Positions 3,539 through 55,200 of a DNA stretch of 64,000 bases are shown one piece after another (within the stretch, counting starts at the first letter, position 1; every line of letters begins with the position of its first letter). The stretch covers positions 48,956,645 to 49,020,644 of the forward strand of contig NC_090281.1 of assembly GCF_037392515.1 (NCBI RefSeq). Direction: 5' to 3'. The notes under the pieces are model-generated. The model made no database searches. It saw only the letters and a list, made by a program, of their open reading frames with translations, and was not told where the DNA came from. The position numbers were made by a program, and so were the translations under genes. This DNA is from Haliotis asinina. Its lineage: Eukaryota > Mollusca > Gastropoda > Lepetellida > Haliotidae.

Positions 3539-3732
3539 GGACCCGACAACCCAGTGACCAACAACATGAGCATCGATCTGCGCAATATTGGGGGCCGATG
3601 ATATGTGTCAACCAAGTCAGCGAGCCTGACCACCCGATCCCGTTAGTCGCCTCTTACGACAAGCATAGTCCCCTTTTATGGCAAGCATGGGTTGCTGAAG
3701 GTCTATTCTACCCCGGAACCTTCACGGGTCCT
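3539..3732 (-). mobile_element. SINE-like repeat A, tail-truncated copy
   Basis: Matches the repeat A consensus visible in the two target-site-flanked copies at 26236-26504 and 31751-32019, but lacks the (ACTC)n-tail half. It is preceded by a TC-dinucleotide run at about 3507-3526. It lies just upstream of the THEM6-like start. Confidence 0.8.
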
Positions 3733-5029
3733 AGTTTGGCAAAGTCGTCATTTTGTGATATGATTTCAGATACCTTTAAGGGAGGAGGACACTTGGACAA
3801 TATTTCTAAATACATGTATGCCACTCTGAAAATATGAACATCATGATGGATTGTTTTGTGTTATGTGTTTACACATTTGAAAAGTGAACTGAGTCAAATT
3901 TCCACTTGGCAACATGGCAGCCATACAAAGCAAGGTGACTTCACAGTCATGCCAGTATAATTGTCCCAATTGTGGTTACACACACACCAAAAGTTTAATA
4001 TCTAACATTAGTAAAATGACATTTATTTCTTGAAAAGAAACATCCAACTGTTTCAAAACAAAATTTTCACCCACAAGACATTTTGGGTTTTCGAGATATG
4101 CCACCTCCAAGTGTACCTTCTGAATCTTCTGTTACGGAGGTGAGAATTTTTATTTATACCTTCAGATTTAATATCATCCTATCACGATAAGCCAGTTAAA
4201 TATTTTTCAAATTAGAATATGCAGTCTGTTGAAGCACAACAAAACAGCGTTCATAATCACATACTGTCAAGTGAAAACATTCTTAAGTGAACTTTAAGAA
4301 TACCACAGTTTAGTTAACTGCAGAACAAACGACATGATCTGTTACGCCAGATATACACTGGAATCTACCTGTTACAGAGGTTATAATGTGAAATGCAGTT
4401 CTCATATATAAGCATAAACATGAGAAATTACATTAATATCAGTGTAATAATTCAGAAATGACAATATCACTGTAATTCTAAAAGTTACACGCTGTACCTT
4501 GCAACACCTTATGAACTTTACACTAGAACTTGCTCCTGATACAAATACTCTTTAAAAAAAAGTAGGGGATCCTCATTATTTTAATTTACGATTAAAAATA
4601 TTTAAGAGATTTATCGGAGTCAATCAATGTTGATATGATATTATTGAATGTTTTGAGAGTGCATCACCATTTGCACTTCCTTACAACCATAGTTATTTGG
4701 AATGTAGTCGCTTTTGAAAGATGATTGGTGTATGGCATCTAATTTGCATGTACGATTTTCATTTTAAAACAAACTACTAGGCACAAACACTAACAAATGT
4801 GTGATGCAAGATGAGTGCCAAAATTTATGTTCTAAGTGATTTCTCGACCTTCTTGAAAAAACGTCAAAATCAAGAATGGGACCCCAAGCCCGTGTGTGGG
4901 GCTACTGCTTTGTGCGCGTGCATCTCATGCGTTGTGTTTAGGGGTGGTAAGAGAGGGAAATGGTGGTGCGTTCATAAGATGTCTGTACTTGAAACGTTTG
5001 TTAACGTTTACACTTCCTATCCAAACTGA

Positions 5030-5199
5030 GACCCGTGAAGGTCCCGCGGTAGAATAGGCCTTCAGCAACCCATGCTTGCCATAAATGGCGACTATGCTTG
5101 TCGTAAGAGGCGACTAACGGGATCGGGTGGTCATGCTCCGCCATATAGCTGGAATATTGCTAAGTGTGGCGTAAAACTCAACTCACTCACCCACTCACC
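5030..5199 (+). mobile_element. SINE-like repeat A, internally deleted copy
   Basis: It begins with GACCCGTGAAGGTCC and ends with the shared GGCGTAAAACTCAACTCAC tail and ACTC repeats. About 100 bp are missing from the middle relative to the 269-bp full-length copies. Confidence 0.85.
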
Positions 5200-6219
5200 A
5201 AATTGAAAGTTCATTATACCCTACTTTTTTAGAAGAGTATATTTCAGATTGCCGATACATTTAGCTCCCAGTCCATAGGAACTGATTCACAACTGCAAGA
5301 GCCCAATTGTCACAAGCTGCATGGGAAGTCGGTCTTCCATATGCACTGAACTGTTTTATATCGGAGTTTGAATCAAAATGGTGTTGTGTTTCAGCACCCT
5401 TGTTTTTCACATTGACTTATTCACATTGATTGCAGTGGGTGACTTCCTTCTGTTGACACTGCTGTTCTTAAGGGTCACAGGCCTATGTTACACACATCCT
5501 CTACCTCACAGTTGAATACAAGATATAACTCATCCTCTGACACACAATATTCACATCATAAATCTTCGCGAACATCAACGGGCAATCTAATGCAACACGG
5601 AGCACAAATACAAACCTATAACACCCTCAGGTAAATCTGGTCTTTGGATACATCTACACTACAAAATGAAGGATACAGTTAGCTTCTTGTCAGTGACGTA
5701 ATTAAAATCCACCTGCTTCGGATTTGTCAAATGATGAGATATCTGAACTTTTGGAGTTGAGGAAATTGGAATAATAATTAAAAGAAAAGAATTATTGTCA
5801 GTTGGAGAAAAAGAAAGGCATTTTAAATTAATGGAATTTGACTTTAATACTCAAAATTAAACAATCCGGGAGCTCAAAACCAACTTTGTATAATCAGGGA
5901 CACTCTACAACCTCTATACAGGCTCCCTGGTACAATTCAACATTTAGCGTGACACGGGGTTGGAGTGACTTCCCGCCGTCGTTGACCCCATTAGCTGTAA
6001 CATGACGAGGGGTCGGTTTGACGTGCGTGCGTTTCAGTTCACAAGGATGCATGTCTCAGGCGTTTGAGATATTGTTGCAACAGGCAATATCCATATCCAC
6101 GTCCTCTTCGTGTCACCTCCGCCATATCGCAGAATGGTCAGTTGAGGGTAGAACCTTGGAACAACATAATCAATAAATATTCTCATGCGCCATCTCACGT
6201 ACTGAGGATGTTGGTAGGA

Positions 6220-6459: not shown

Positions 6460-7440
6460 TAAAAGAATGTGAAGAAGGGTGGTGAGAAGGATGTAGAGGA
6501 TGGTGTAATGAAGGATGCAAAGGAGGATGGTGTAAAGAGGGATGCAAAGAAGGATGGTGTGAATAATGATGCAAAAGAATATGATGTAAAAGATGTAAAG
6601 AAGGATGGTGTAGAGAATGTAAAGGAAGATGGTGTAAAGAAGGGTGCAAAGGAGGATGGTGTAAAGAAGGATGTAAAGGAGGGTGTTGAGATGGATGTAA
6701 AGGAAGATGTTGAGAATGTAAAGGAGGGTGTTGAGATGGATGTAAAGGAGGATGGTGTAAAAAAGGATGTAAAGGAGGGTGTTGTAAAAAAGGATGTAAA
6801 GGAGGGTGTTGAGATGGATGTAAAGGAGGATGGTGTAAAAAAGGATGTAAAGGAGGGTGTTGAGATGGATGTAAAGGAGGATGGTATAAGAAAGGATGTA
6901 AAGGAGGGTGTTGAGATGGATGTAAAGGAAAATGTTGAGCAGGATGTAAAGGAGGGTGTTGAGATGGATGTAAAGGAGGATGGTATAAGAAAGGGTGTAA
7001 AGGAGGGTGTTGAGATGGATGTGAAGGAAAATGTTGAGCAGGATGTAAAGGAGGGTGTTGAGATGGATGTAAAGGAGGATGGTATAAGAAAGGGTGTAAA
7101 GGAGGGTGTTGAGATGGATGTGAAGGAAAATGTTGAGCAGGATGTAAAGGAGGGTGTTGAGATGGATGCAAATCTGGATGATCGGGAGGGTGTAATGAAG
7201 GATGTGATGATTGATGTTAAGTTGTAAAGGAGGGCTTCGATCAGGGTGCAATGGAGGTTGTTAAGAAGGATGTTAGGGAGGTTAAAAAGAAGGATGTTTA
7301 TGGAGAATGTGAAGGAGGTTGTTGAAAATTGTGTAATGGAGGGTGTTGAGGATGATGTTAAGTGCAATCTTATGGAGGTTGTTAAGAAGGATGTTGAGAT
7401 AGATGTAAAGGGGGCTGTTAAGGAAGGTGTTACTCTCATC
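6460..7440. repeat. Purine-rich minisatellite with 99-bp higher-order unit
   Basis: The plus strand is almost free of C and built from GATGTAAAGGAGGGTGTT-type modules. Three adjacent copies of a 99-bp higher-order unit are nearly identical: 6871-6969, 6970-7068 and 7069-7167. The flanks are progressively degenerate. Because the modules are multiples of 3 and poor in stops, long open frames appear on both strands (for example 6469-7227 plus and 6342-7469 minus). These have no start context, domain or splice partner, and I do not call them genes. The strand bias could favour triplex structure. Confidence 0.9.
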
Positions 7441-18104: not shown

Positions 18105-26850
<8,746 letters not shown>

Positions 26851-30555: not shown

Positions 30556-30967
30556 TTATCATCCAAAATCATTCTTCATTAGTTTCAATGAAAAATGTAC
30601 ATCTCTGAACACAGTACTGCCATTACATTTGCAGTGCAGCAATGTCATAGCATTGTGACATCATCCAACTTCATGACATCATAGCATTGTCAGGCCATTG
30701 TACAAAATCTACTGTCAAAACAATATCTCCGAAGAGATATCATCTGATCTCACACAAGCGTATCCAAAACAGATACACTTTGCCAGTAACTTAACGCAAC
30801 GGGTTGGCCATCAGAGGTCAAAGTCACTGACCCCCAACTATACTTTGTGATAAGGGATAATGCTTTCCTAAAAATATTAGGATGTGACACAATTGGTTCA
30901 GTATATACGAAGTATTCTACGAGACACCCATCATATTTATTGCTGTAACCACTGGATGTAGCCATGC

Positions 30968-31608
30968 TTGTCCTACTGTGGGGATTCAGGGTTAGAATAG
31001 GTCCCCAGAAATCTGTGCTGGTCCTACTGTGGTGATTCAGAGTTAGAATAGGTCCCCAGAAATCTGTGCTGGTCCTACTGTGGTGATTCAGAGTTAGAAT
31101 AGGTCCCCAGAAATCTGTGCTGGTTCTACTGTGGTGATTCAGAGTTAGAATAGGTCCCCAGAAATCTGTGCTGGTCCTACTGTGGTGATTCAGAGTTAGA
31201 ATATGTCCCCAGCAACCTGTGCTGGTTCTACTGTGGGGATTCAGGGTTAGAATAGGTCCCCAGAAATCTGTGCTGGTCCTACTGTGGTGATTCAGAGTTA
31301 GAATAGGTCCCCAGACATCTGTGCTGGTTCTACTGTGGTGATTCAGAGTTAGAATAGGTCCTCAGAAATCTGTGCTGGTCCTACTGTGGTGATTCAGGGT
31401 TAGAATAGGTTACCAGAAACCTGTGCTGGTCCTACTGTGGGGATTCAGGGTTAGAATAGGTTACCAGAAATCTGTGCTGGTCCTACTGTGGGGATTCAGG
31501 GTTAGAATAGGTCCCCAGAAATCTGTGCTGGTTCTACTGTGGGGATTCAGGGTTAGAATAGGTCCCCAGAAATCTGTGCTGGTCCTACTATGGGAATTCT
31601 GGGTTCCT
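30968..31608. repeat. 51-bp tandem array
   Basis: About 12.5 copies of a unit starting GTCCTACTGTGGTGATTCAG and ending CCAGAAATCTGTGCTG. Starts at 30970, 31021, 31072 and 31123 give a period of 51 bp. Two interleaved variants (GGGGATTCAGGG and GGTGATTCAGAG) are seen. The 63-residue frame across its right end is repeat-derived. Confidence 0.93.
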
Positions 31609-31750: not shown

Positions 31751-32019
31751 GACCCGTGAAGGTCCCAGGGTAGAATAGCCCTTCAGCAACCCATGCTTGC
31801 CATAAAAGGCGACTATGCTTGTCGTATGAGGCAACTAACGGGATCGGGTGGTCAGGCTCGCTGACTTGGTTGACGCATGTCATCGGTTCCCAATTGCGCA
31901 GATCGATGCTCATGTTGTTGATCACTGGATTGTCTGGTCCAGACTCGATTATTTACAGACTGCCGCCATATAGCTGTAATATTGCTGAGTGCGGCGTAAA
32001 ACTAAACTCACTCACTCAC
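31751..32019 (+). mobile_element. SINE-like repeat A, full length with target duplication
   Basis: A 269-bp copy bounded by an exact 13-bp duplication, TCTAAGTTTTTAG (31738-31750 and 32020-32032). Begins GACCCGTGAAGGTCC and ends with the CGGCGTAAAACTAAACTC tail and (ACTC)n. Confidence 0.95.
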
Positions 32020-33795: not shown

Positions 33796-35645
33796 TAGTT
33801 ATCAGTGATTCACAATATATTTTCAGACTTCATTAAACAGCCAATTCCTAGTATGTGGGATATGTTTGTAAGTCTACATTTTAAAACCACATGATTACTG
33901 CTCGAGTGTGACTTGCCATTCTTCTTTGATTCATGTCGTATGAATTTGTTAAAATTTGTGTCAAGAATTTCATGTTCATTCCTGACTCAGAACAACCACA
34001 ACAAAAATAGCATGACCTCCCTTGATTCACTGTCGAGAACAAACAACGTCAACTATATGCTTGGCTTTTCACATAAGCTTTTGTATTGTGCTCTATGTAT
34101 TGTACACAGACCAGAGGTCTTTGTACAAATAAAAACGTTTTTCCTTCTTTCACACAATGTAAGCCGGGACAAACAAGTTAAAGTGGCCAAGAAACTAGAG
34201 TGTGAGAATAAAAGAAGAAACACCTAGATTCTGATGTACTCAGACCTCTACGAGGCTATGTAGAACAGGGAGAATCTCTGTAACAATCTCACAGGAAAGT
34301 TAATGTTGTACTAGAGTTCTAAAAATAAATTCAACAAAAAGAATAAAAGATATACAGCAACATGCAGCACTTTGAATAGTTGTTATATTGCATTTGTGTC
34401 CATAAAATAAAGCTGCTGTGTCCGACAGCCAGTCACTCGGTAAGGACATCCGTACAATATCACTGAAAAGGCAAGAAATATTTCACACCTTCAAACTACT
34501 GTGTGTCAAAATTGAACAAAGGAAAGGGAGTTTTGTCACAAAGTAGGAATGTTTATCGGCGACAGAATATTGACACGTATGAAACGAGCAGTTCATCATT
34601 AACAACTGAGTTTTACGCAGACTTGGACACAAAAACTAGCCTGTTAGATCTTGACTGGTGAAAATCGAGACGGGCTAGTTGTTTTGTTTCAGCCACTTGT
34701 AGCTGAAATGACCAGATACATTTAACCAATGGTGTCCATCCTTGATAACAGGCTATGAGCTATGAATTAAAAAATATGTGTCTGAACTGACGAGCCAGAT
34801 TTCATTAGTGGTATCAACCAATTGATGGCTTGTGAACTTTGAGTCTTTCACTGTAAAGCCACAGACATTGATACTTCGCCAGGTTATGCAGTGCAGCATT
34901 GTTCAGTCCAGCCTTTCCAAACGGTTACTCCATAGCTTTCCATTCTTCAATTATCTGGGTCATTTAGAAAATACTTTAAACTGCTGGCACTTGTCAGCCA
35001 TACAAGTTTAATTACTAGAATATGTTTGCATATTTTTAACTTTAAATCAAGTCAGGCGTATTGTTGGCAATTTCCCAAGGCCTTTTTAGTTTGTGAAGAG
35101 TGGGGAACAGGGGTTTTAGATGTCATGCTAAAAATATTTTGTTAATATGATGACATGTATGCATGTGTATATGTGGCTGCTTGCACAAGCCCAGACTTTA
35201 GCTGATTTTATAGTGCTAGCTCACTGCGATACCATGCCACAGTCAAGCATGAATACCCCATGCTCAAACATGTTATGCTGACTCCAGTCCTTGTTTAATC
35301 CATTTATCCATGTTTATGCCGAGCTCCAGGCAGGGAGTAACAAGTAACATATTTTAACGTCTTTTGGTACATGCAACCAGAGATCAAATACTTAGTCTGG
35401 AGTTAAGCTTGTCAGTGTTTCAGATTTACATTCATTCCTGACCTGCCCCTACCTGGACAGTCCAGTGCCATGATAAATGTTTGTGGGTGAATGACAATTG
35501 TCATGTTAGAAAACACAACATGACTCGAAATGACCGAAGTTGATCATGGTGGGCATGATTTTCGATTCAGTTAGTTTGACATTCATGTTTTTCACAAGTC
35601 AGTTGAACTGAAATCAGACAGAATGTATTTGTTCTTAAATAGCAA
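33796..35645. other. Gene-free stretch
   Basis: Mixed-composition intergenic DNA. The longest open frame (33913-34227) resembles no family I know and lacks splice partners. No RNA genes were seen. Confidence 0.4.
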
Positions 35646-35649
35646 AACT

Positions 35650-36535
35650 ACTATATCAATATCAACACCAAAATAACATGAATACCACAAAGTCAGTATC
35701 AAAACCACAATATCATTATCAATACAACATCAATATCAACACCACAATATCATTATCAACACCACAATATCAATATCAAAACCACAGTATCATTATCAAT
35801 ACAATATCAATATCAACACCACAATATCAATATCAAAACCACAATATCATTATCAATACAATATCATTATCAACACCACAATATCAATATCAAAACCACA
35901 GTATCATTATCAATACAATATCAATATCAGCACCACAATATCAATATCAAAACCACAGTATCATTATCAATACAATATCAATATCAACACCACAATATCA
36001 ATATCAAAACCACAGTATCATTATCAAGATCAATATCAATATCAACACCACAATATCAATATCAAAACCACAATATCATTATCAATACAATATCATTATC
36101 AACACCACAATATCAATATCAAAACCACAGTATCATTATCAATACAATATAAATATCAACACCACAATATCATTATTAACACCACAATATCAATATCAAA
36201 ATCACAGTATCATTATCAATACAATATCAATATCAACACCACAATATCAATATCAAAACCACAGTATCATTATCAATACAATATCAATATCAACACCACA
36301 ATAACAATATCGGAGACCCGGGTTCGATTCCCCACATGGGTACAATGTGTGAAGCCCATTTTCTGGTGTCCCCCGCCGTGATATTGCTGGAATATTGCTA
36401 AAAGCGGCGTAAAACTAAACTCACTCACTCACTCACTCACTCACTCACTCACTCACTCACTCACTCACTCACTCACTCACTCACTCATAACAATATCAAA
36501 ACCACAGTATCATTATCAATACCACAATATAATTT
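35650..36535. repeat. ATATCA/ACCACA-type tandem array, split by a SINE
   Basis: Built from TATCAATATCAA, CACCACAATATC and AACCACAGTATCATTATC blocks with a repeat period near 57-60 bp. The 208-residue frame over it is a product of stop-poor repeats. The array resumes at 36498 after the SINE at 36312-36486. Confidence 0.9.
36312..36486 (+). mobile_element. 5'-truncated SINE-like repeat B inserted in the array
   Basis: Starts inside the tRNA-like head (GGAGACCCGGGTTCGATTCC) and keeps an exact box B, the body, and a long (ACTC)n tail at about 36419-36486. Exact 11-bp duplication ATAACAATATC at 36301-36311 and 36487-36497. Confidence 0.95.
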
Positions 36536-43200: not shown

Positions 43201-44966
43201 TCACCACACGACTGATTTGTATAGCATGTTTCAGCAAGAAATATTTAAATATTTATGTGATCTGCTCCAGAAGCAGAAAGAAAGAATCAGAAGGAAAGAT
43301 GGATGGCCAATGTGGTCACTTCAATCACCCATTTCTCAAACCTTAGAAGTCAGCTGATGTGCGAATTTTGACAAAGAATATTTTCACGATTTCAGTTTGG
43401 ATTCTGAGGGTGCAGAGTGCAAGAAGTACTAGAATTAGTACTTTAAAAAGTTCACATAGAAAGTGCGATTCCAAATATGTTTCTTTTGTAAAGGAATATT
43501 TTTTATTACTTGTTCATGTAAGATACAGCAGTGTAATATTTTTAATTACCACTAGACATTTGACATCATAATGGTTTACAGTTATGACGTCACTGTGCTA
43601 ATACCTCTATCACAATAGTATTAGACCTTGCGTCATTTGCGGACAGTCATCACACAGTTAGGCAGACTCTATCAATTTATGTACAAAGAATACTTAACAC
43701 AACTTTTGCTTTCACCCATTTGAAATCAAATCATTAATTCGTTTAATAAAAAGGTATTACATGGAACATCGTTTACTATCCTCTCTATAATTCAGTTGTA
43801 TCATCATTGATTGCAGATAATAATACTCCAGTCACTCCAATGGTATGTTCATGTGTCCCAATTTTGTGTTCTCATCTGCAAATTCTCTCATCTACAGGTA
43901 TGTTCTTTCATCTACAGGTTCTCTGATCAAAGTTATTAGCCACTTCATAGACCTTATCAGGACAGGCAACAAAAGCAAGTTTTTTCACTCGTAAGTTCAT
44001 TCAGGCATAGTCCTTACAAATCAATCTACACACAGTACAAATTATTCAAATCCATGAGTTACCATTTTATTCTTTGGTTAGGAGGTGGAGGAATTTTTGG
44101 GGCTTGCAAAAGAGAAAGCACATTTGAAATATATGAAATATTCCCCGAGTATGGTAATCTGCTAATTCTGTTTTTGTACATGGATAGTTTTGAATTCCTC
44201 TCAGGGCAAATCAGTACAAATATGCATTGTGAAGAGCTTTTAGAAGAACATTTCATGTTGGTTGTTACATTCATATTCCAGTTATCAAGGAAAAGATTTA
44301 CAGTCCTTAGAGGCAATGAATCTCAAGTAATGCTCAGTACTTTGATCAAGACCTTCTACCTGTAAATCAGGGGTTCAAATTTGTTTAAAAGCCACTTTCC
44401 ACATGGCAAGTGACTTTTAGAATATCACTTGTCCCCACAAATTTGCCATTTGCCCTGATTTTTATGACATAATCACGATAATATAAATATGAAAGAATAA
44501 ATCAACATGGTATTTGCTGTAATGTTTACTAGAACTATTTACTGAGAAGTGATATATACCAAAGAAAGATAACTCTACTTTATTACCATTGTGAATTTAT
44601 TAACTACATTTTGAGCAGATATGAAATGAAATTCAAGTGTATTTGAAGTTTCAAACTCTCAGCAGAAATTATCTGGTAGCCCATGGACAAGTAAGACACC
44701 ATTATTTGTTTGCTTGAAATGAAAAATGACTTGTACTAGGTGTCTGGCGCTGGGATTTTTAACCCCTGTGTAAATTGAAATGCAGTTGTAAGTGATTTTG
44801 GAGTATACTTAGGTGTCAAGATTTGCAGCAGCACCAGTAGTAGTAGTAGAAGAAGATGAAGACACGGTGTTGGACAGTCTTAAATACATTACATAAACTG
44901 ATATTCACAATCAGACATTGATATTTACAAGTGAGAGGTGACTGGTTCCAAGGAGCAAACTGAAAT
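40201..44966. other. Gene-free stretch left of the DIRS element
   Basis: Contains a (CA)n tract at about 41511-41527, a fragment of repeat C at 43396-43480, and an AGT/AGA-rich tract near 44838-44865. A good minus-strand splice donor lies at 41374 (CACTG/GTGAGT), discussed as a possible distant UGDH 5' exon. Otherwise no gene was recognised. Confidence 0.4.
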
Positions 44967-45005
44967 TTATACAAACCTGTAGAGGTTATGAATTCTTTGA
45001 AGAAT

Positions 45006-45208
45006 GTCCTCCTTGGGGTACATATATAGCATTAAAATGTCCATTTAAAAATGCCTACGACAGTTGTAACAATATTGAATAAATATTTTACAAAACAAAA
45101 ACTCGTTTTTGTCTTGTGAGACCACCCCTACAGGGCCCCCACCCGGGCCCCTTAACAGCCAAGAGCAGGTAACTCTCGCCGTGTACCTCATACCTCACTT
45201 TTCATGCT
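45006..45208. repeat. DIRS inverted terminal repeat, left
   Basis: 203 bp from GTCCTCCTTGGGGTAC to CTTTTCATGCT. It is the inverse complement of 51165-51367 with no difference seen by eye. The outer extension to about 44967 is matched by the internal complementary region. Confidence 0.93.
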
Positions 45209-45245
45209 GAGATTGTCAGACAGAATGTGGGGAGGCGGGTGGCCG

Positions 45246-45342
45246 TACCCCAAGGAGGACATTCTTCAAAGAATTCATAACCTCTACAGGTTTGTATAAT
45301 TCTTTTTCAGAAGAAGTCCTCCTTGGGGTACATATATAGCAT
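45246..45342. repeat. DIRS internal complementary region
   Basis: The left part (TACCCCAAGGAGGACATTC to GGTTTGTATAA) is the inverse complement of the element's left outer end. The right part (TTCTTTTTCAGAAGAAGTCC to TATATAGCAT) is the inverse complement of its right outer end. They meet as in a circle junction, the hallmark used by DIRS1 elements to rebuild their ends. Confidence 0.93.
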
Positions 45343-45696
45343 AAGACAGACTCCCAACGAACGTGAGTCGGGAGCGGCATTCTGTCTGCTGATGTGTACC
45401 CTACACACACTCTCATACACTGCCGAAGCTGCGAGAGATAGAATACACTTACCCAATCACCAAGCCGCTGATGTCAATCAGGCGGGGGCGTGGCAACATA
45501 GGGCCGAAAGAGCCAATCGACAATAACCCAGCAAAGGTGATGGACATATGACCACACCTCATGCCATTCACTGTAAATATTCCCCCAAACCAGCGAAGTA
45601 GTGCCGGGAATAACAGTGCAAGGGTAAATATGAGCGTATGTCGACGCTAATAGTGAAAAAACCGTCTAGAGGTAGTTTCTCTTTGTGTTTTTGTTG

Positions 45697-45699
<3 letters not shown>

Positions 45700-45734
<35 letters not shown>

Positions 45735-45735
45735 C
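45700..45735. repeat. (TA)n microsatellite within the DIRS element
   Basis: A run of TATATATA about 30 bp long between the recombinase region and the internal complementary region. Confidence 0.85.
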
Positions 45736-45841
45736 ACCACCACCAGGGGATATCCGTCACCAATATAACAAGAAATGTTTCGTGAAAACCCACCACCAGG
45801 AACATTTCATGATAAACAAAGTCGAGATCTCAGACGCTCAT

Positions 45842-46918
45842 TCAGCTAGGGGAATCACGACTCTGCCCACTGGTGAGAACTGTATGGCCAAACCGAGCAC
45901 GTTCCCGTGAATGTTTGTCCAGTTGGTAGTGACGGATAAACGTGCTCGGTCGGCTCCAAATAGCCGCAGAGCAGATCTCCTCAATGGGCAGAGCCGCGGC
46001 ATAAGCCTGTGACGTAGCCACTGCCCTAACAGAATGAGCCTTTAACCCATTAGGGATAGGTAACCCTTTATGAGTATATGCCATACAAATGGCAGAGACA
46101 AGCCACCTAGATATGGTTTGCTTGTTCGCCGGCAGACCAGCTCTTCCCCCGCCATAACAACAAAACAACTGGTTATCTTTTCGGATATCAGCAGTTCGTT
46201 TGATATAAGCCCTAAGGGTCTTACGGACATCTAAGACGTGAGCACGTCGAAGAGAGGTACCGGGCGAGGGAGGCTGCATGAGCTTAGGGAGCTCGATAGG
46301 CGCTGTAACATGAAAAGCGCCTGCGATCTTAGGACGGTAAGAATCCGGCAGTCTAATACTGACCCTGTCTTTGTGAAAGACGGTCAAAGCAGGATCCGCT
46401 GACATTGCATGAATGTCACCTACCCGCCTGCCAGACGTTACCGCCACAAGAAAGGCAGCCCTCCACGTTAACAGCTGGAGAGAAAGAGACGATAGCTCGT
46501 GAAAAAGAGGACCGGACAACCAGTCAAGAACGACTGACAAGTCCCACGGGGGACTAATCCGCCGGACAGTCGGACGGATCCTATCCACACCCGCTAAAAA
46601 ACGCTGAACAAGAGGGTGCTGCCCCAAGAGAGCACCGTCAACAGGAATATGGAATGCCGAAATGGCCGTGGAATAGCCCCGGATAGTAGAGGCGGCTAGG
46701 CCTGACTCTAACCGGGACTGCAAAAATTCCAGTACTTCAACTAGAGTTGAAGAAAAGGGATCAAGAATCCCCCTGTTGACACACCAGCGCGCATAACAGG
46801 CCCATCTATCCTCATATTGAACGTTTGTCGAATCCCTCCGCGAAGCCAGAATTGTGTCTGCAACTGGTGCAGAAATTCCGCTCGCTTGGAGGCGATTCCT
46901 GACAGTGGCCAGGCCACC
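45842..46918 (-). CDS. DIRS tyrosine recombinase region
   Basis: The C-terminal part of a long minus-strand frame. It has an SAM-like N-terminal core-binding segment (VQYEDRWACYARWCVNRG, ASTIRGYSTAISAF) and a catalytic region with SGRRVGDIHAMS, KAHSVRAVATS and IRHYQLD, fitting the R-HxxR-Y pattern of tyrosine recombinases. The family uses it for integration instead of a DDE integrase. It overlaps the end of the RT region, as is common in DIRS elements. Part of a retroelement fossil; not a host gene. Confidence 0.9.
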   Translation of the reverse strand, partial: GGLATVRNRLQASGISAPVADTILASRRDSTNVQYEDRWACYARWCVNRGILDPFSSTLVEVLEFLQSRLESGLAASTIRGYSTAISAFHIPVDGALLGQHPLVQRFLAGVDRIRPTVRRISPPWDLSVVLDWLSGPLFHELSSLSLQLLTWRAAFLVAVTSGRRVGDIHAMSADPALTVFHKDRVSIRLPDSYRPKIAGAFHVTAPIELPKLMQPPSPGTSLRRAHVLDVRKTLRAYIKRTADIRKDNQLFCCYGGGRAGLPANKQTISRWLVSAICMAYTHKGLPIPNGLKAHSVRAVATSQAYAAALPIEEICSAAIWSRPSTFIRHYQLDKHSRERARFGHTVLTSGQSRDSPS

Positions 46919-48825
46919 CACTGAATCCTGGGATTCGGGTGCGGCGCTCCGTTCTGGGATAGTAAGTCCGGTCGAAAGGGTAAAAGGACAGGAGGCAATG
47001 CCAGAAACCTCATCATTACCGGAAACCAGCTTTGAGACGACCAAAGAGGAGCAAGAAGCACTAACAGTCGAGCTGGTTGGGTGGCAAGCTGCGAGAGGAC
47101 CCTGGGAATCAGCGGCAGAGGTGGGAACGCCCACAATACCCTGTCCGTCCAATCGAGCTGGAAAGCGTCCTGAGCGATGGCTCTCGGATCCGGTATCCGA
47201 GAACAAAACACCGGAATCTGGTTCGTCCCCCCAGAGGCAAACAGATCCACCTGGAACGATCCGAACAACCGGGAGATAATCCCGAATATCTCCCGATGCA
47301 ACATCCACTCGTGAGGAGCTAGGACACGTCGAGAGAGCGCGTCTGCTCGAACATTGTCCACCCCGGGGAGATACACGGGACACACCCGAACATTGAACCG
47401 GTCGCACCACTGTAGAAAGTGCCACGCCTCCTCTAGGAGGGACGGAGAAACCGTACCGCCCTGTTTCAGGATATAGGTCATTGCCGTCTGGTTGTCCATC
47501 TCTAGACGTACCACACAGCCTCGAACCGTCTCCCGAAAGTGTTGGAACACTAGCCGGACAGCTCTCAATTCGAGCACATTGATGTGCAGGCGCGTTTCGT
47601 GCCGTAACCATAGGCCCGAAACTGAATGGGCGCCCAGCACGCCACCCCACCCTGTGAGGGAAGCGTCCGTCTGAATTGAAAGGGTTGGTGAGGGAGCGTC
47701 CAGGGGTAACCCCCTGGATAGATTCCCTACCACTGTCCACCACCGTAAATGAGGAAGGAGCCACTCCGGAGTGAGGAGAATCATCTCGTAACTCCTGCCG
47801 TGGGACCACATTCGCGCCAAGGCGTACTGAATGGGTCGCATCCTCAACCGCGCCCTCCAAACAACGTCCACCGTCGCTGCCATGTTGCCTAGCAACTGGA
47901 GCCAAACCCGAGCCGAAGCCGAGGGGGACTCGAGGAATTGCATAACAACTCTCTGAACTTTGGAGATCCGATCCGGCGACAGGGAGACTATGCCTCTCGC
48001 TGTGTCGAACCGTGCGCCTAAGAAGATCAGATCCTGTGTAGGAACTAGGTCTGACTTCTTGAGATTGATAATCCAGCCCAACCTGGTGAGAATACACATT
48101 ATGGCGAATGTTGCGTCTCGACTCAAGTGAGCGGCAAGTGCTCGTATAAGCCAATCGTCCAGGTACGGGTGACAACACCTGCCCTGTGACCTGGCCACTT
48201 GCGCTGGGATTAACATAAGCTTGGTGAATACCCTCGGAGCCGTAGCGATGCCGAAGGGAAGCACCCGAAACTGATAGCATACCCCGTCGAAGGAGAACCG
48301 CAGGTACTTCCTGAACTCGGGATGCATCGGAACATGCAGGTACGCATCCTTGAGGTCGATGGACGTAAGCCAGTCGCCTCTTTCTACAGATGAGATCACT
48401 GACCGTAGTGTCTCCATCTTGAATGACGGTACCTGCAGCATAGTGTTCAGCCGTTTGAGATTGAGAATCGGTCTGAACCCTCCGTCCTTTTTGGTGACCA
48501 GGAAATAAGTGGAGTAAAATCCCTCTTGTTCCTGGCCCCCTGGAACCACCTCGATGGCCGCCTTGTCCAGTAAAGACTGAACCTCGGCTTTCTCCGGAAC
48601 TACCGGCACAGGAGTGCGCCGAATTCCGGAAAAGGGAGGCGGGTCTCTCTTCCATAGTGGTAAGTGGCCGTCCCTGAGTGTGGATAGGACCCAGGGGTTG
48701 GAGGTTACCTTTTCCCAATCCGACAGGAAGTGGGAAAGGCGGCCACCCACAGGAAGGTTTGGCAGAAGGCAATGAATGCCCGACGTCGGCAGTGCTCCGA
48801 CTGCTTGATTCGGGATCACTTGCAA
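46741..48825 (-). CDS. DIRS reverse transcriptase, RNase H and methyltransferase-like region
   Basis: A 694-residue minus-strand frame. Reverse transcriptase: FLVTKKDGGFRPILNLKRLN, SIDLKDAYLHVPMH, FRVLPFGIATAP and the active-site box YLDDWLI. RNase H: QTDASLTGWGG, LEMDNQTA and VRADALSR. The C-terminal part (VDLFAS, DAFQLDW, LWAFPPLPLI, LLAPLWSSQSWFP) matches the Dam-like methyltransferase region typical of DIRS1 elements. Part of a retroelement fossil; not a host gene. Confidence 0.93.
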   Translation of the reverse strand: MQVIPNQAVGALPTSGIHCLLPNLPVGGRLSHFLSDWEKVTSNPWVLSTLRDGHLPLWKRDPPPFSGIRRTPVPVVPEKAEVQSLLDKAAIEVVPGGQEQEGFYSTYFLVTKKDGGFRPILNLKRLNTMLQVPSFKMETLRSVISSVERGDWLTSIDLKDAYLHVPMHPEFRKYLRFSFDGVCYQFRVLPFGIATAPRVFTKLMLIPAQVARSQGRCCHPYLDDWLIRALAAHLSRDATFAIMCILTRLGWIINLKKSDLVPTQDLIFLGARFDTARGIVSLSPDRISKVQRVVMQFLESPSASARVWLQLLGNMAATVDVVWRARLRMRPIQYALARMWSHGRSYEMILLTPEWLLPHLRWWTVVGNLSRGLPLDAPSPTLSIQTDASLTGWGGVLGAHSVSGLWLRHETRLHINVLELRAVRLVFQHFRETVRGCVVRLEMDNQTAMTYILKQGGTVSPSLLEEAWHFLQWCDRFNVRVCPVYLPGVDNVRADALSRRVLAPHEWMLHREIFGIISRLFGSFQVDLFASGGTNQIPVFCSRIPDPRAIAQDAFQLDWTDRVLWAFPPLPLIPRVLSQLATQPARLLVLLAPLWSSQSWFPVMMRFLALPPVLLPFRPDLLSQNGAPHPNPRIQWVAWPLSGIASKRAEFLHQLQTQFWLRGGIRQTFNMRIDGPVMRAGVSTGGFLIPFLQL

Positions 48826-48842
48826 GGGCTCCGGAGGATGAC

Positions 48843-50720
48843 TTACTGGGAAGCCGGGGCCGACTTCCCTTTCCTCGGAAAAGGATGCTGGGGCGCCGCA
48901 GCCTTGCCCTTGCCCCTACCCTTACCCTTACCCTTCCGCGCCTGCAAGGGCTGTGCCCACTTAGCAGAGTCCTTGGCCGGAGCCGAAGGATAAGCGGAGG
49001 AAAGCACCGGGGGACGCGCACGAGAAGTGTGAGGCTGTTCTAACAAGGGTTTAGACTCCTTGAATGTAGACACAGCCTCCGCGGCCTCCCGGACTACTGA
49101 TGCCGCTCCCGGGAAGAGAGTAGATCCCATCCGGAATGGCAGTGAAAGTAGCGCTTGTTGAGTGGCCGGCGAATACCGTGCCACGGACAGCCACAGTCTA
49201 CGGAGGCCCATAACTGCAGACATCATCTGACACGCCGAGGACCTGATCGAGTCCCGCGCCAGATGTGACTGCACCTCCGTAAGCTGTTGAGCGAGCGTAG
49301 GGGAAACACACTCCTCCTCAACACCGCCGCCGTCAACAAGCCGACGCTGCAATACCGAAGTATATGCGGCGTGTATTGTGACCTTAAGGCATTGAGCTGC
49401 ATTTCGGTACTGCTCCTCAAACGACCTATAAGCCGATTTGAGGGCAGTAACGTTAGAGGTGAACGGAGGCAGGCGGCGTCCTTGCTTAGCCGAAGCTAAG
49501 GAGCTGCCAGAGGAACCCCCCAGGGCGACCGATGCATAGATACAGTCGTCGACCACTGGAGGGTTATACAAGTCAAGATCACCCATCAGGTAACGTCGGT
49601 CTAGCTCCGGCAAATCGAAGCGTGACCGCGCTCCCGTTAAAAGAGGGTTAATCACTTCTGACAAAATAGAAGGGAGGATGCGCAACCGAGAATCCACCAC
49701 CTTGGCTGGGGCAAAAGCCTCACCCGGCAGTCGGAATTCCTCGGGGTCAGGTGTCGCCGAAGCAACCACGACCTGCGGCAGGACAGAAGCAATACGCTCC
49801 CGTACCTGCCTCAGCGAGGCGCCGAGCGAAAACGAAAACTCACTCGGCCCACCCCGGTCCTCCCCCTCCTCCATTATCTCCTCGGCGCGATCCCCCATGA
49901 GTGACACCTCAGATCTGTCATCTAAGGATAGCTCCGGGGGATCGGTCGAGGGAACATCCGAAAGAGAGAGAGGCCCGAGCAGAGCCGAGCGGCCCGACGC
50001 CATAGACCCGACGCCCGAGACTGAGTCTGGGTGGCGGATCGCCGGCAACGCTCCCAACATAGGCATGGTCCCATGACCAACACTGGCAACCTCGGAGTGG
50101 CTGGCAACCGACTCTAAAGTCGGTTCCTGCGCACCCCTAATGGAAGTCCCCACACCGGCGCCAGAGGCGTGGCTGGGGAGTCCCATGGAAGCCGAAGCCG
50201 GATACACACCCGACTCCGGACGAACGCCGATCTCCTGACGGAGACCGGACATCGCATCCGAAATCAGGGTATGCACCGACGCCTTTTGCTGCTGTAACAA
50301 AGACGAAAGTAAATCAAAAGTTAACGGTTGCGAGGGTTCAGTGGGAGGTGCTGCGGAGGTAGAAGCCACCGCTGGAGGTGGAACCGAAGTACCCTTCGCT
50401 GGTTTTGCCGTATCCCCCCCCGAGACTGACGCCGAAGACGCCTTCTTAATATCTTTTTTAGCTTTTTTTGAAGGCGGCTCCTGAGCCCAAATATCCCCCC
50501 CCGCCTGGATCAAAGATCTATAAAAGATCAAGTCTGCATGACGGGATTTTTGAGCCCTGGGGGAAAAGTCCTGACATACGGCGCATCCTTGCTCGTCGTG
50601 AGCTTCCTCCGCCAAGCAACGCAGGCACAGAATATGCTTATCCCTCGGGGGGAGTTTTGCGTTACAAGTAGCACACACCTTGAACTGGAAAAAACCGAAC
50701 CGTGCTATGATTAATAGCAA
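48843..50720 (-). CDS. DIRS gag-like region
   Basis: A 625-residue minus-strand frame directly upstream of the RT region. It begins with a cysteine cluster (CATCNAKLPPRDKHILCLRC and CAVC), has Ser/Pro/Ala-rich middle segments and a basic Gly/Lys-rich C terminus (RKGKGKGRGKGKAAA). Assignment as gag rests on position and composition. Part of a retroelement fossil; not a host gene. Confidence 0.8.
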   Translation of the reverse strand: MLLIIARFGFFQFKVCATCNAKLPPRDKHILCLRCLAEEAHDEQGCAVCQDFSPRAQKSRHADLIFYRSLIQAGGDIWAQEPPSKKAKKDIKKASSASVSGGDTAKPAKGTSVPPPAVASTSAAPPTEPSQPLTFDLLSSLLQQQKASVHTLISDAMSGLRQEIGVRPESGVYPASASMGLPSHASGAGVGTSIRGAQEPTLESVASHSEVASVGHGTMPMLGALPAIRHPDSVSGVGSMASGRSALLGPLSLSDVPSTDPPELSLDDRSEVSLMGDRAEEIMEEGEDRGGPSEFSFSLGASLRQVRERIASVLPQVVVASATPDPEEFRLPGEAFAPAKVVDSRLRILPSILSEVINPLLTGARSRFDLPELDRRYLMGDLDLYNPPVVDDCIYASVALGGSSGSSLASAKQGRRLPPFTSNVTALKSAYRSFEEQYRNAAQCLKVTIHAAYTSVLQRRLVDGGGVEEECVSPTLAQQLTEVQSHLARDSIRSSACQMMSAVMGLRRLWLSVARYSPATQQALLSLPFRMGSTLFPGAASVVREAAEAVSTFKESKPLLEQPHTSRARPPVLSSAYPSAPAKDSAKWAQPLQARKGKGKGRGKGKAAAPQHPFPRKGKSAPASQ

Positions 50721-51164
50721 GGCCCGTTAATCCAACAAACACATGAGTATTTAACAGAAACAATAATACGCACTGGCGATATTTAACCGTTAAATAATAA
50801 GAAAGCTATTTATGAAAACATACAATAGCATATAAGGATTTCTTTACCATGGAAAAGAAAGGTAAAAAACCATACAAATATCCGGTTTGTATTTAAAACC
50901 ACCTAAAAGAATAGGCAGAAGAAATAACCACCAGGTACGTGCCGCCCGCCATCTTGTCAGCCACATGACTGAAGACCACGGTAGCCACGGAAAGTTACAA
51001 CATTTCATGAATGAAAAAGAGTGAAATATGCATTCCTAATACCGCCCGTGCGTTAAAAAGGAACCATACATACGGTTTTCGTAGCTTTCTCACTCATTTC
51101 TCTTCAATTCGTAGGTTCTCTAAGTATGAGAGCTTGCTGATGGACGACTGTCCTCAAAGACGAC

Positions 51165-51367
51165 AGCATGAAAAGTGAGGTATGAGGTACACGGCGAGAG
51201 TTACCTGCTCTTGGCTGTTAAGGGGCCCGGGTGGGGGCCCTGTAGGGGTGGTCTCACAAGACAAAAACGAGTTTTTGTTTTGTAAAATATTTATTCAATA
51301 TTGTTACAACTGTCGTAGGCATTTTTAAATGGACATTTTAATGCTATATATGTACCCCAAGGAGGAC
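51165..51367. repeat. DIRS inverted terminal repeat, right
   Basis: Inverse complement of 45006-45208. The outer extension GACTTCTTCTGAAAAAGAAT reaches about 51384 and is matched by the internal complementary region. Confidence 0.93.
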
Positions 51368-51384
51368 TTCTTCTGAAAAAGAAT

Positions 51385-52529
51385 AAGCTTTCTGTTTTCA
51401 GTCATATTCATATAGTATTAAAAATGATTCGAAACAGGCCAGAAAATTGTCAGAAATGTGTGAAATTGTGCCTTTAAGTCAGTTACGGGTTCAAAGAAGC
51501 ATACACATTGAGAATTACTTAAATGACATAGAGCAAAATACACAGCATTCACTACTGAATTTGAGGGAGAACAGGGCTAAGCCCATAATAAAGGATAATA
51601 TAAGAAACAAAATATCATGTAAAAGAAGAATATCCTGTTACCATGGTTATAATGTTATTATCTTAATATCAGAAAATGATATTTACCAAGAAATACACAT
51701 AAATTTCTAACATTGTTGGATAAGTCGAAATCCCACATATTATGGTTGAAAATAATAATAATAACTATAATTCATCTATGTATATAGCACTGAACTCCAC
51801 ATTGCCAGGACATACTCTAACCACATACAATGTGACAGACATTACAAACCTTGTTACAGGAAGGTTTATACACCTTTGATTAAAAATTCACTTTGGAAAA
51901 ATCAATGTCAGATAGGTGTATCTCCTAAATCACACATGCAACAGATGGTGCCAGAAGGTTGAAGCTTGTGTACTAATAAAGTAAGCACCTGTTGTCAGGA
52001 AACTTATTGCAGCAACGCTCTTGTCTCATGCTTTGTCACTTTAACGCTCAATTTGTCACTTCAAAGTTGTGCTATCGCTTTGAACTACTAAATGAAACAT
52101 TATGATACACTGAAAATCTCACCCAGTATATTGATAAATATAAAAATGTTGATTTAATCAATAATCAATAATTAATGAACATTATAGAAATGCTGATGCC
52201 ATAAAAGTGAATGTCTTTGTTGGTTATTGGAGGAGGCAGGGAAATTCCTGTTTAATATTTAGATAGCTTTAGCCCACTTGTTGCTTGGTTGATAGGAATC
52301 ACTAGAAAACACTCAAAGTCAAATGATGTCTTACTAGAGAGATCTAAACACTAGTGTTGGGAACTGACGATGTGTTCACAGCGATGTGTTCAATATACTG
52401 GCAGATTTTATCGGCAGTTTGTCTCAGGTGTAAATGTCAGATCTAAAATGACAATAATGTCAATAATAATTCATCCCTTGCTTATCCCTTTATCTGTATG
52501 CTGATCCACTGACCTGCACCACATTTCTC
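51385..52529. other. Gene-free stretch
   Basis: AT-rich DNA. One frame (51447-51710) has no recognisable domain. Nothing else seen. Confidence 0.4.
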
Positions 52530-53320
52530 AAAGCAGTCATAGTGCCATGACTATCATAGATCCTATATCTTAACAGAGAGTTACACCCGTTGTAGTGCCA
52601 TGACTATGATAGCTCCCATACATAGGTCCTATACTTTATCATAGAATTACGACAGATATAGTGCCATGACTATCATAGCTTCTATACATAGGTCCTATAC
52701 TTTATCATAGATTTACGACTGTCGTATTGCCATGACTATCACAGCTCCTGTACTGTAACACAGAGTACAACAGTTTTAGTTTTATGACTACCATAGCTCC
52801 TATACTTTCAGAGTTACAATAGTTATAGTGATAAGACTATCATAGCTCCTATACTTAAACATAGAGCTACGACAGTCGTAGTTATGAGTATGATAGCACT
52901 TTAACACAAAGTTGCAACAGTTGAAGTGCCATGACCATCATAGCTCCTATACTTTAACACAGAGTTGCAACAGTTGAAGTGCCATGACCATCATAGCTCC
53001 TATACTTTAACACAGAGTTGCAACAGTTGAAGCGCTATGACCATCATAGCTCCTATACTTTAACACAGAGTTGCAACAGTTGAAGTGCCATGACCATCAT
53101 AGCTCCTATACTTTAACACAAAGTTGCAACAGTTGAAGTGCCATGACCATCATAGCTCCTATACTTTAACACAGAGTTGCAACAGTTGAAGCGCTATGAC
53201 CACCATAGCTCCTATACTTTAACATAGAGTTGCAACAGTTGAAGTGCTATAACCACCATAGGTCCTATACTTTAACATAGAGTTACAACAGTTGAAGTGC
53301 TATGACCATCATAGATTCAC
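52530..53320. repeat. 53-bp tandem array
   Basis: About 14-15 copies of GTGCCATGACCATCATAGCT followed by CCTATACTTTAACACAGAGT and a GTTGCAACAGTTGAA-like end. Starts at 52921, 52974 and 53027 give a 53-bp period. Copies from about 52900 to 53300 are nearly identical. Those to the left carry many substitutions and small length changes. Confidence 0.92.
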
Positions 53321-54749: not shown

Positions 54750-55200
54750 GAGAAAACACTGTAGAAACCTAATGAACAAAAACTGTGAGGAGCCTTATAA
54801 CATGACAGTGTAGGGAGCCTTATACACACAACACTGTGGATTGAGTGAGTTTAGTTATAAGCCACACTCAGCAATATTCCAGCTATATGGCGGCGGTCTC
54901 TAGATAATCGAGTCTTGACCAGATAATCCAGTCATCAACAGCATGAGCATCCATTTGCACATCTGAGTACCGATGACATGTGTTAAACAAATCAGCAAGC
55001 CTGACCACCCGAGCCCATTAGTCGCCTCTTACGACAAGCATAGTCACCTTTTGTGGCAAAAATAGGTTGGTGAAGGATTATTCTACTCCTGATCTTCACA
55101 GTTCCAACACTGTAGGAACCTTATAGACATAACACTATTAGAAGCCTTATACACACAACACTGTAGAGAGCCGTAGAGACGCAACACTGTAGGGAACTTT
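54750..55200. repeat. ~28-bp degenerate repeat split by a SINE
   Basis: Copies of CACAACACTGTAGGGAGCCT followed by TATA and ACA occur on both sides of the repeat A copy at 54838-55104, so the array predates that insertion. Confidence 0.75.
54838..55104 (-). mobile_element. SINE-like repeat A, near full length
   Basis: GTGAGTTTAGTTATAAGCC tail at left; head CTGATCTTCACAGTTC at right. CAACACTGT flanks both sides (54829-54837 and 55105-55113), although the surrounding repeat also contains this word. More diverged than the copies at 26.2 and 31.7 kb. Confidence 0.85.

What the first reader, a model, noticed from the sequence alone, without database searches (positions are those of the whole stretch)
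44967..51384. Architecturally complete DIRS1-like element in a mollusc genome
All hallmark parts are visible: 203-bp inverted terminal repeats that look identical, an internal complementary region matching both outer ends, and gag-, RT/RNase H/methyltransferase- and tyrosine recombinase-type regions. DIRS elements are patchily distributed in animals and usually found degraded. A copy with matched ends and long open regions suggests recent spread in this lineage.
Basis: partly seen in the sequence, partly recalled or inferred. Interest (0 to 1): 0.75.

Follow-up and report, generated by a model that had tools for sequence, protein, structure and literature searches.

The report
Young DIRS1-like retrotransposon family in mollusc
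This is a complete copy of a known kind of mobile element that copies itself through RNA and inserts with a tyrosine recombinase; it belongs to a recently spread family whose copies show exactly where the element joins the chromosome, hinting that a folded single DNA strand may be what gets inserted.

Summary
At 44967-51384, coding on the minus strand, lies a complete DIRS1-like element: 204-bp identical inverted repeats, an internal complementary region (ICR) matching both ends, and gag, RT/RNase H/Dam-like and tyrosine-recombinase regions. DIRS1-like elements have been reported from molluscs since 2011, so it is a new member of a known kind. The host genome carries mollusc-type haemocyanin.

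The family is young: a 62-base piece occurs 54 times; of 20 copies read in full, closest pairs differ at 0.05-0.1% of sites and six keep all three frames open. Repeat identity alone is no clock, because four of six ITR variants shared between copies occur in both repeats of a copy.

Insertion is conservative, target N^NTT joined to circle A^TTC, without duplication; the ICR holds the exact circle joint. All 19 normally oriented copies show one junction class although target and circle differ beside the cut. As single-stranded DNA the joint folds into an imperfect hairpin with the cut in its stem. I infer that a folded single-stranded circle, joined by one strand exchange as in integron cassettes, is the substrate: attractive, unproven.

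The parts
44967..51383 (-). DIRS1-like element proper (6417 bp); the finding's last base, 51384, is target DNA
51164..51367 (-). 5' conserved inverted terminal repeat, 204 bp
   Evidence: identical to the 3' repeat
45006..45209 (-). 3' conserved inverted terminal repeat, 204 bp
51368..51383 (-). 5' outer extension (16 nt, after the target base at 51384)
44967..45005 (-). 3' outer extension, 39 nt, ends at the cut site
45245..45342 (-). internal complementary region; its complement on the + strand is the exact circle joint, which is predicted to fold into an imperfect hairpin
   Evidence: the 87-nt hairpin part is letter-identical in six of seven loci picked near pol copies of 78-90% protein identity
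48843..50726 (-). gag frame, with N-terminal cysteines resembling a double zinc ribbon (not significant in Pfam) and a LAP2alpha-like C-terminal part
   Evidence: non/syn ratio to expectation 0.25 on 29 shared variants, 0.65 on single-copy variants
46741..48915 (-). pol frame: reverse transcriptase (YLDD), RNase H, Dam-like methyltransferase
   Evidence: ratio 0.53 on 7 shared variants, 0.57 on single-copy variants, 0.44 against L052
45842..46924 (-). tyrosine recombinase region (R, HSVR and Y motif recalled); the longer 1065-aa frame upstream, where it overlaps pol, shows no constraint of its own
44964..44966 (-). target NTT immediately 3' of the element

Best explanation
A complete copy of a young DIRS1-like tyrosine-recombinase retrotransposon family. 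Shown here: the element inserts conservatively, without duplication or loss, by joining the circle joint A^TTC to a target N^NTT, at the same position in every normally oriented copy read; the ICR holds that joint exactly; the two ITRs of a copy tend to share variants. Inferred: the RNA lacks parts of the terminal repeats; the cDNA ends anneal to the ICR as a splint and are ligated into a circle; the joint, flanked by the inverted repeats, folds as a single strand into an imperfect hairpin with the cut in a short stem; the recombinase exchanges one strand with the target and replication resolves it. The confidence given is for identity, youth and the conservative junction; for the folded single-strand step it is about 0.3.
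For: Architecture and domains. Empty sites for four of 19 copies: L035 (one locus, 96% over 301 nt) and L046 (four alignments to tandem units in its own locus, 92-94%; its leading G is in the empty units) are clear; L033 (20 alignments over the joint at 71-86%, at least three of them the same place fetched twice, two gapped across the joint) and L039 (one, 83%, gapped just after the joint) are weaker. In these the joined flanks lack one base, the N that starts the element. One junction class in 19 of 19 normally oriented copies (L034 has a substitution at its second base). Genome-wide, 3' ends with exact 30-nt context followed by NTT: 97+44 with GTATAA against 2 with another last base, one of them the rearranged copy L052; only 3 matches with a non-T first element base. 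N and n are independent: 29 AA, 14 A/other, 9 other/A, 5 other/other of 57 pairs, Fisher p=1.0. Target table over 33 distinct flanks: +2 T 32, +3 T 30, +4 T 26; +1 A 22, G 7, T 3, C 1, so target and circle (TTC) mostly differ at +1 and +3. Joint hairpin -30 kcal/mol, z -11.3 (+ strand, 87 nt); its 55-nt core between the ITR-derived arms z -5.6, 0 of 200 shuffles as stable, 3 of 1045 window pieces outside the element as stable; the cut lies in an 8-bp stem. Circular DIRS-1 cDNA has been detected in Dictyostelium according to PMC5633606 (passages).
Against: Nothing shows a single-stranded circle in this animal. Strand bias or directed repair after an ordinary double-strand exchange would give the same junctions. 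The hairpin's outer arms follow from the ITRs, which DIRS1-like elements have anyway; its sequence is almost invariant here, so there is no covariation test, and 5 of 104 pieces inside the element fold as well. Only two of 19 copies had clear empty sites. Three of 33 distinct 3' flanks lack TT. Two of six ITR variants shared between copies sit in one repeat only (position 176 in L038 and L042, position 97 in L037 and L047), and counted by cells 18 are in both repeats and 35 in one, many of the latter from deletions in L037 and L047. One of 20 copies (L052) has its interior inverted relative to its ends. In the diverged copy L053 the ICR and the 3' end differ at three places.
Confidence: 0.9

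Rival explanations
1. Published model: a circle recombines at its 3-bp joint with an identical 3-bp sequence in the genome (as stated in PMC3266345, section 3).
For: The ends read NTT, most often ATT, as in that paper's Table 3, and no duplication is seen.
Against: The empty sites place the 5' N and the whole 3' NTT in the target; the 3' end reads GTATAA-NTT, one base longer than the model's GTATA-ATT unless n is T (3 of 33 flanks); N and n vary independently.
Confidence: 0.07
2. A double-stranded circle is integrated by ordinary two-strand exchange, and the heteroduplex is always resolved in one direction by repair or strand bias.
For: Known tyrosine recombinases usually act on double-stranded sites with a 6-8 bp overlap (recalled); the junction data alone cannot exclude it.
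Against: Random segregation would give about half of the other class: 0 of 19 has probability 1.9e-6, so the bias would have to be nearly complete.
Confidence: 0.4
3. The two ITRs of a copy agree because of gene conversion between inverted repeats inside the chromosome, not because of replication.
For: L052 shows an interior inverted against its ends, as recombination between the ITRs would produce; two variants private to one copy (positions 147 and 165) are in both its repeats.
Against: The other variants private to one copy are in one ITR only, whereas four of six shared between copies are in both, which points to homogenisation before or during copying.
Confidence: 0.25
4. The copy is an old, degraded remnant.
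For: The window copy lacks 15 nt of pol in frame; 9 of 20 copies have none of the three frames intact.
Against: All three frames are open in the window copy; copies differ by as little as 0.05%.
Confidence: 0.01

Closest known systems
DIRS1-like elements of molluscs: AcaDIRS1/2 (Aplysia californica), LgDIRS1-3 (Lottia gigantea), Table 3 of PMC3266345
   Same: Host phylum; ATT ends and AAT circular junction in four of the five; ITR plus ICR plus right extension; no long overlap of pol and recombinase frames, if the unconstrained overlap here is discounted
   Different: Longer (6417 bp against 4680-5808); conserved ITR 204 bp against 31-36 (141 in LgDIRS2); shorter divergent part (about 17 against 30-36)
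SkoDIRS1 of Saccoglossus kowalevskii (same table)
   Same: Terminal layout: divergent ITR 16, conserved ITR 202, right extension 30, start and end ATT, junction AAT; also a high-copy family
DIRS-1 of Dictyostelium discoideum
   Same: ITRs, ICR, gag / RT-RH-MT / YR (PMC5633606, passages read); circular cDNA detected there according to the same passages
   Different: Long pol/YR overlap (Table 3 of PMC3266345). [quoted passage not shown]
Integron attC cassettes (recalled)
   Same: Works like: imperfect hairpin formed by one strand, cut next to TT within a stem, one junction class without duplication
   Different: Not a member: bacterial, different recombinase, no reverse transcription; single-strand activity not shown here

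Membership tests
DIRS1-like retrotransposons | Inverted terminal repeats | tested here: met
   204 bp, 100%
DIRS1-like retrotransposons | ICR near the 3' end complementary to both outer ends | tested here: met
   45245-45342
DIRS1-like retrotransposons | gag, then RT/RNase H, on one strand | tested here: met
   RNase H below its curated cut-off; gag named from position, zinc-ribbon-like cysteines and the LAP2alpha match
DIRS1-like retrotransposons | Methyltransferase domain after RNase H | tested here: inconclusive
   Dam at 2.2e-4, 21.4 bits against a cut-off of 28.1; right place
DIRS1-like retrotransposons | Tyrosine recombinase instead of a DDE integrase | tested here: met
   PHROG 1 integrase 2e-6; no significant Pfam, NCBIfam or PDB match; single-sequence model unusable, pLDDT 34.9
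DIRS1-like retrotransposons | No target-site duplication | tested here: met
   empty sites
DIRS1-like retrotransposons | Integration at a target identical to the 3-bp circular junction | tested here: not met
   target is N^NTT, circle A^TTC, one-base offset. This is part of the published mechanism rather than of the taxonomy
DIRS1-like retrotransposons | RT falls in the DIRS1 clade | not tested
   no reference sequences at hand; viral contigs gave no relative by tblastn
Ngaro / PAT elements | Split direct repeats | tested here: not met
   in 44000-52500 the only exact direct repeat of 20 nt or more is a 27-nt piece shared by ITR and ICR; three further pairs are short and 74-81% alike
Integron-like folded attachment site | Imperfect hairpin with the cut in a stem | tested here: met
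   (prediction only)
Integron-like folded attachment site | Single-strand exchange by the recombinase | not testable with these tools
   needs biochemistry

The most novel reading that the evidence does not exclude
DIRS1-like elements have inverted repeats and an ICR because they integrate from a folded single-stranded cDNA circle: the ICR measures and splints the joint, the ITRs fold it into an attC-like hairpin, and the recombinase makes a single strand exchange at N^NTT that replication completes. This would be a eukaryotic, retrotransposon-borne counterpart of integron cassette integration.
Probability: 0.3. Interest if true: 0.8.

Novelty: new member of a known kind. Interest (0 to 1): 0.5.

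Why it matters
How DIRS elements integrate has been modelled since 1985 but, according to a 2017 review (PMC5633606, passages), not fully proven. This family has many copies, readable empty sites and independent target letters on both sides of the cut, so the exact exchange point can be read. The reading corrects the printed 3-bp identity rule for this family and gives a sharp test of single- against double-strand integration. It also warns against using ITR identity as a clock in DIRS elements.

Tried and rejected
Reciprocal heteroduplex footprint: from 19 copies the first 5' base and first 3' flank base looked reciprocal. With 57 pairs they are independent and the empty sites place both in the target, so this was dropped. 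One of 58 pairs was removed as false (C1:101643912 is the ICR of another copy); one 3' end with several partners and 82 without a partner in the lists were not counted. The lists behind the pairs are uneven: the listing stops at contig C4, and further A-type 5' ends come only from the longer exact pattern, so the shares of A and non-A are not unbiased.

Rolling-circle tandem: three 3' ends spaced 6408 bp on C3 looked like concatenated circles. Each is followed by the same sequence that does not match the element, so I read it as a tandem duplication of a segment carrying a diverged copy.

Long pol/recombinase overlap: the 1065-aa frame is open over pol, but its frame there shows no constraint (ratios 0.95 on single-copy variants, 2.48 on seven shared, 1.82 against L052; third-frame control 1.21, 0.95, 1.18) while pol does (0.57, 0.53, 0.44); the recombinase-only part is 0.77, 0.40 on two variants, and 0.66, so its own constraint is only weakly shown. 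A first version of that count (part 'YRcat') used a wrong frame and is discarded.

ICR-to-end templating test in the diverged copy L053: its own ICR and 3' end differ at three places, so no support there for template-driven co-change.

Structure of the recombinase from one sequence: mean pLDDT 34.9, not used. Covariation of the hairpin: no useful variation. Relatives in viral contigs: none. PDB by sequence and NCBIfam for the recombinase: no significant match. tRNAs in the window: none.

Literature: the listings of searches show no title or abstract start about a folded single-stranded joint or an empty-site analysis of DIRS elements; most listed papers were not opened and the library lacks most subscription journals, so this is weak. 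Seen further: PMC3266345 outline, sections 3 and 10, and passages; PMC5633606 and PMC9210276 passages. PMC7192593 is not held. A look into PMC10294476 failed on a short term and was not repeated. Integron facts, the recombinase motif and usual overlap lengths are recalled.
Full report
WHAT IS THERE. The window is G000:C2:48956645-49020644 in a 1.14-Gb assembly of 159 contigs. The host is a mollusc: 16 haemocyanin beta-sandwich domains (PF14830) in two clusters of eight, none in 14 control genomes; a haemocyanin piece matches solved haemocyanins such as KLH1 (that they are molluscan is recalled). The element spans 44967-51384 with its genes on the minus strand. The conserved inverted repeats are 204 bp and identical, far beyond chance. 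Outside them lie a short 5' extension and a 39-nt 3' extension, and the ICR at 45245-45342 matches both outer ends without a mismatch.

GENES. Gag (627 aa) carries a LAP2alpha match above Pfam's cut-off and cysteines resembling a double zinc ribbon (E about 0.6, not significant); pol has RVT_1, and RNase H and Dam matches below their cut-offs; the recombinase region matches a phage integrase family at 2e-6 and has R, HSVR and Y residues of the kind expected (motif recalled). Among 19 copies, variants shared by at least two copies give non/syn ratios relative to expectation of 0.25 in gag (29 variants) and 0.53 in pol (7 variants); single-copy variants give 0.65 and 0.57; the recombinase-only part has two shared variants (0.40) and 0.77 on single-copy ones. 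The frame of the long upstream part of the recombinase ORF shows no constraint (0.95 and 2.48; third-frame control 1.21 and 0.95). So gag and pol have been under selection, the recombinase less clearly so, and the apparent long overlap is probably just an open frame, in line with the report that mollusc elements lack long overlaps (PMC3266345, section 10).

A YOUNG FAMILY. A 62-mer at the 3' ITR/ICR border occurs 54 times with up to 3 mismatches, 37 exactly. Terminal motifs occur 562 and 518 times with up to 3 mismatches, counting ICRs as well as ends. Protein search with pol gives 63 matches, only 62 of 6315 candidates being scored; 22, the window included, span the whole protein at 99-100% identity without a stop, and further matches without a stop exist at about 90% (3), 80-81% (2) and 77% (2) over nearly the whole protein. 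Twelve of the other 19 align to the window copy in one piece over 6.4 kb at 98.2-99.6% identity. Closest pairs differ at 0.05-0.1% of sites, median 0.94%, maximum 2.5%, with L052 left out and gaps not counted. Six of 20, the window copy included, have all three frames free of frameshift, stop and indels of 30 nt or more; four have two, one has one, nine have none. The window copy lacks 15 nt of pol, in frame, that 17 of the 19 others have.

THE REPEATS TEND TO EVOLVE TOGETHER. Of the six ITR variants that two or more of 19 copies share, four (positions 91, 138, 175, 177) are in both repeats of every carrier whose repeat is intact there; position 176 is in the 5' repeat only of two copies, and position 97 in the 3' repeat only of two. 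Counted by cells, 18 variants are in both repeats and 35 in one, many of the latter from deletions in L037 and L047. Within-copy difference averages 1.84 sites against 3.34 between copies, and 0 of 10000 permutations matched it. Hence identical ITRs do not safely date an insertion; identity between copies does better. L052 has 3'-type and 5'-type ends exchanged relative to its interior, as recombination between ITRs, or within the circle, would produce.

WHERE THE ELEMENT JOINS THE CHROMOSOME. In coding sense the 19 normally oriented copies begin N-TTCTTTTTC (L034 with a substitution) and end GTATAA followed by NTT; over 33 distinct 3' flanks, 30 have NTT and three do not (the end of L030 lacks the exact search word and is not among them). 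Empty sites decide what belongs to the target. L035's flanks are contiguous in another locus (L018), with one extra base equal to the leading N. L046, which begins with G, sits in a tandem repeat whose other units carry that G at the joint (four alignments). L033 (20 alignments, 71-86%) and L039 (one, 83%, gapped) agree but are weaker; L037 gave one weak alignment that cannot be read. Thus both N and the following NTT are target bases, the element is TTC...GTATAA, and its circular joint GTATAATTC is exactly what the ICR holds. Exchange is conservative: target N^NTT, circle A^TTC, no duplication.

ONE JUNCTION CLASS. Target and circle mostly differ at +1 (A or G against T in 29 of 33 flanks) and +3 (T against C in 30 of 33). 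A two-strand exchange with any overlap on that side would leave two kinds of junction after replication; 0 of 19 shows the other kind (probability 1.9e-6 at even odds; upper 95% bound 15%). Genome-wide, among 143 3' ends with exact context and NTT, 2 have a different base before the cut, one being the rearranged L052, and only three matches have a non-T first element base, one of which is L034, whose flanks do not fit the other class. The first bases on the two sides are statistically independent (57 pairs), which removed my first idea of a heteroduplex footprint. The pattern counts cover only copies with intact ends and a TT target.

A FOLDED JOINT. As single-stranded DNA the joint is predicted to fold into an imperfect hairpin (-30 kcal/mol; z -11.3 and -9.2 for the two strands) with bulges and with A^TT inside an 8-bp stem. 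The part inside the ITR arms still folds better than 200 of 200 shuffles (z -5.6) and than 1042 of 1045 pieces of the window outside the element, though 5 of 104 pieces inside the element fold as well. The 87-nt hairpin of the ICR is letter-identical in six of seven further loci (L057-L062; L063 has two changes), chosen by position near pol copies of 78-90% protein identity. This is strong conservation or exchange, but invariant pairs say nothing about pairing.

MECHANISM. Shown: exact joint in the ICR, conservative exchange at one position, a tendency of ITRs to share variants, selection on gag and pol. Inferred: splinting by the ICR, single-stranded circle, one strand exchange and resolution by replication, by analogy with integron cassettes (recalled). 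Circular DIRS-1 cDNA is reported from Dictyostelium (PMC5633606, passages), and a 2020 title speaks of linear, single-stranded cDNA (reference list only). In a single-stranded circle the second strand of the joint would be the ICR itself, elsewhere in the same molecule, so only one exchange would be productive; this would explain the single class. The rival, double-strand exchange with nearly complete one-sided resolution, remains open.

PLACE AMONG KNOWN THINGS. It is a DIRS1-like element by architecture. In terminal layout it resembles SkoDIRS1 more than the published Aplysia and Lottia elements, apart from LgDIRS2's longer ITR. No phylogeny was made. The confidence of 0.9 is for the element's identity, youth and conservative junction; for the folded single-strand step it is about 0.3.

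Noticed in passing
L052 (G000:C6:40923155-40932572): Copy whose interior is inverted relative to its two end types: the 3'-type end sits on the 5' ITR and the reverse.
   Followed up: partly
G000:C3:60974300-60987800 (L053-L055): Three 3' ends of a diverged DIRS copy spaced 6408 bp with the same following sequence; read as a tandem duplication, not circle concatemers.
   Followed up: partly
window 50684-50954, minus strand: The gag frame has no ATG before its cysteine-rich start but a pyrimidine-rich stretch ending in CAG just before it, with a short ATG frame 268 nt upstream: a possible spliced leader intron.
   Followed up: no
window 3539-3725, 23447-23627, 26300-26488, 31756-31955, 54901-55099: Five copies of a dispersed repeat, 81-86% identical to the joined flanks of DIRS copy L033.
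   Followed up: no
window 6463-7172, 22680-23270, 30965-31605, 35638-36311, 52687-53314: Long tandem arrays with units from a few to about 300 bp, some giving long open frames without gene character.
   Followed up: no
G000:C2:96255865-96318095: Two neighbouring clusters of eight haemocyanin domains each, on the same contig as the window.
   Followed up: no
window 48843-50726, minus strand: Gag matches LAP2alpha (Pfam), consistent with the recalled origin of the vertebrate LAP2alpha domain from a DIRS1-like gag.
   Followed up: no
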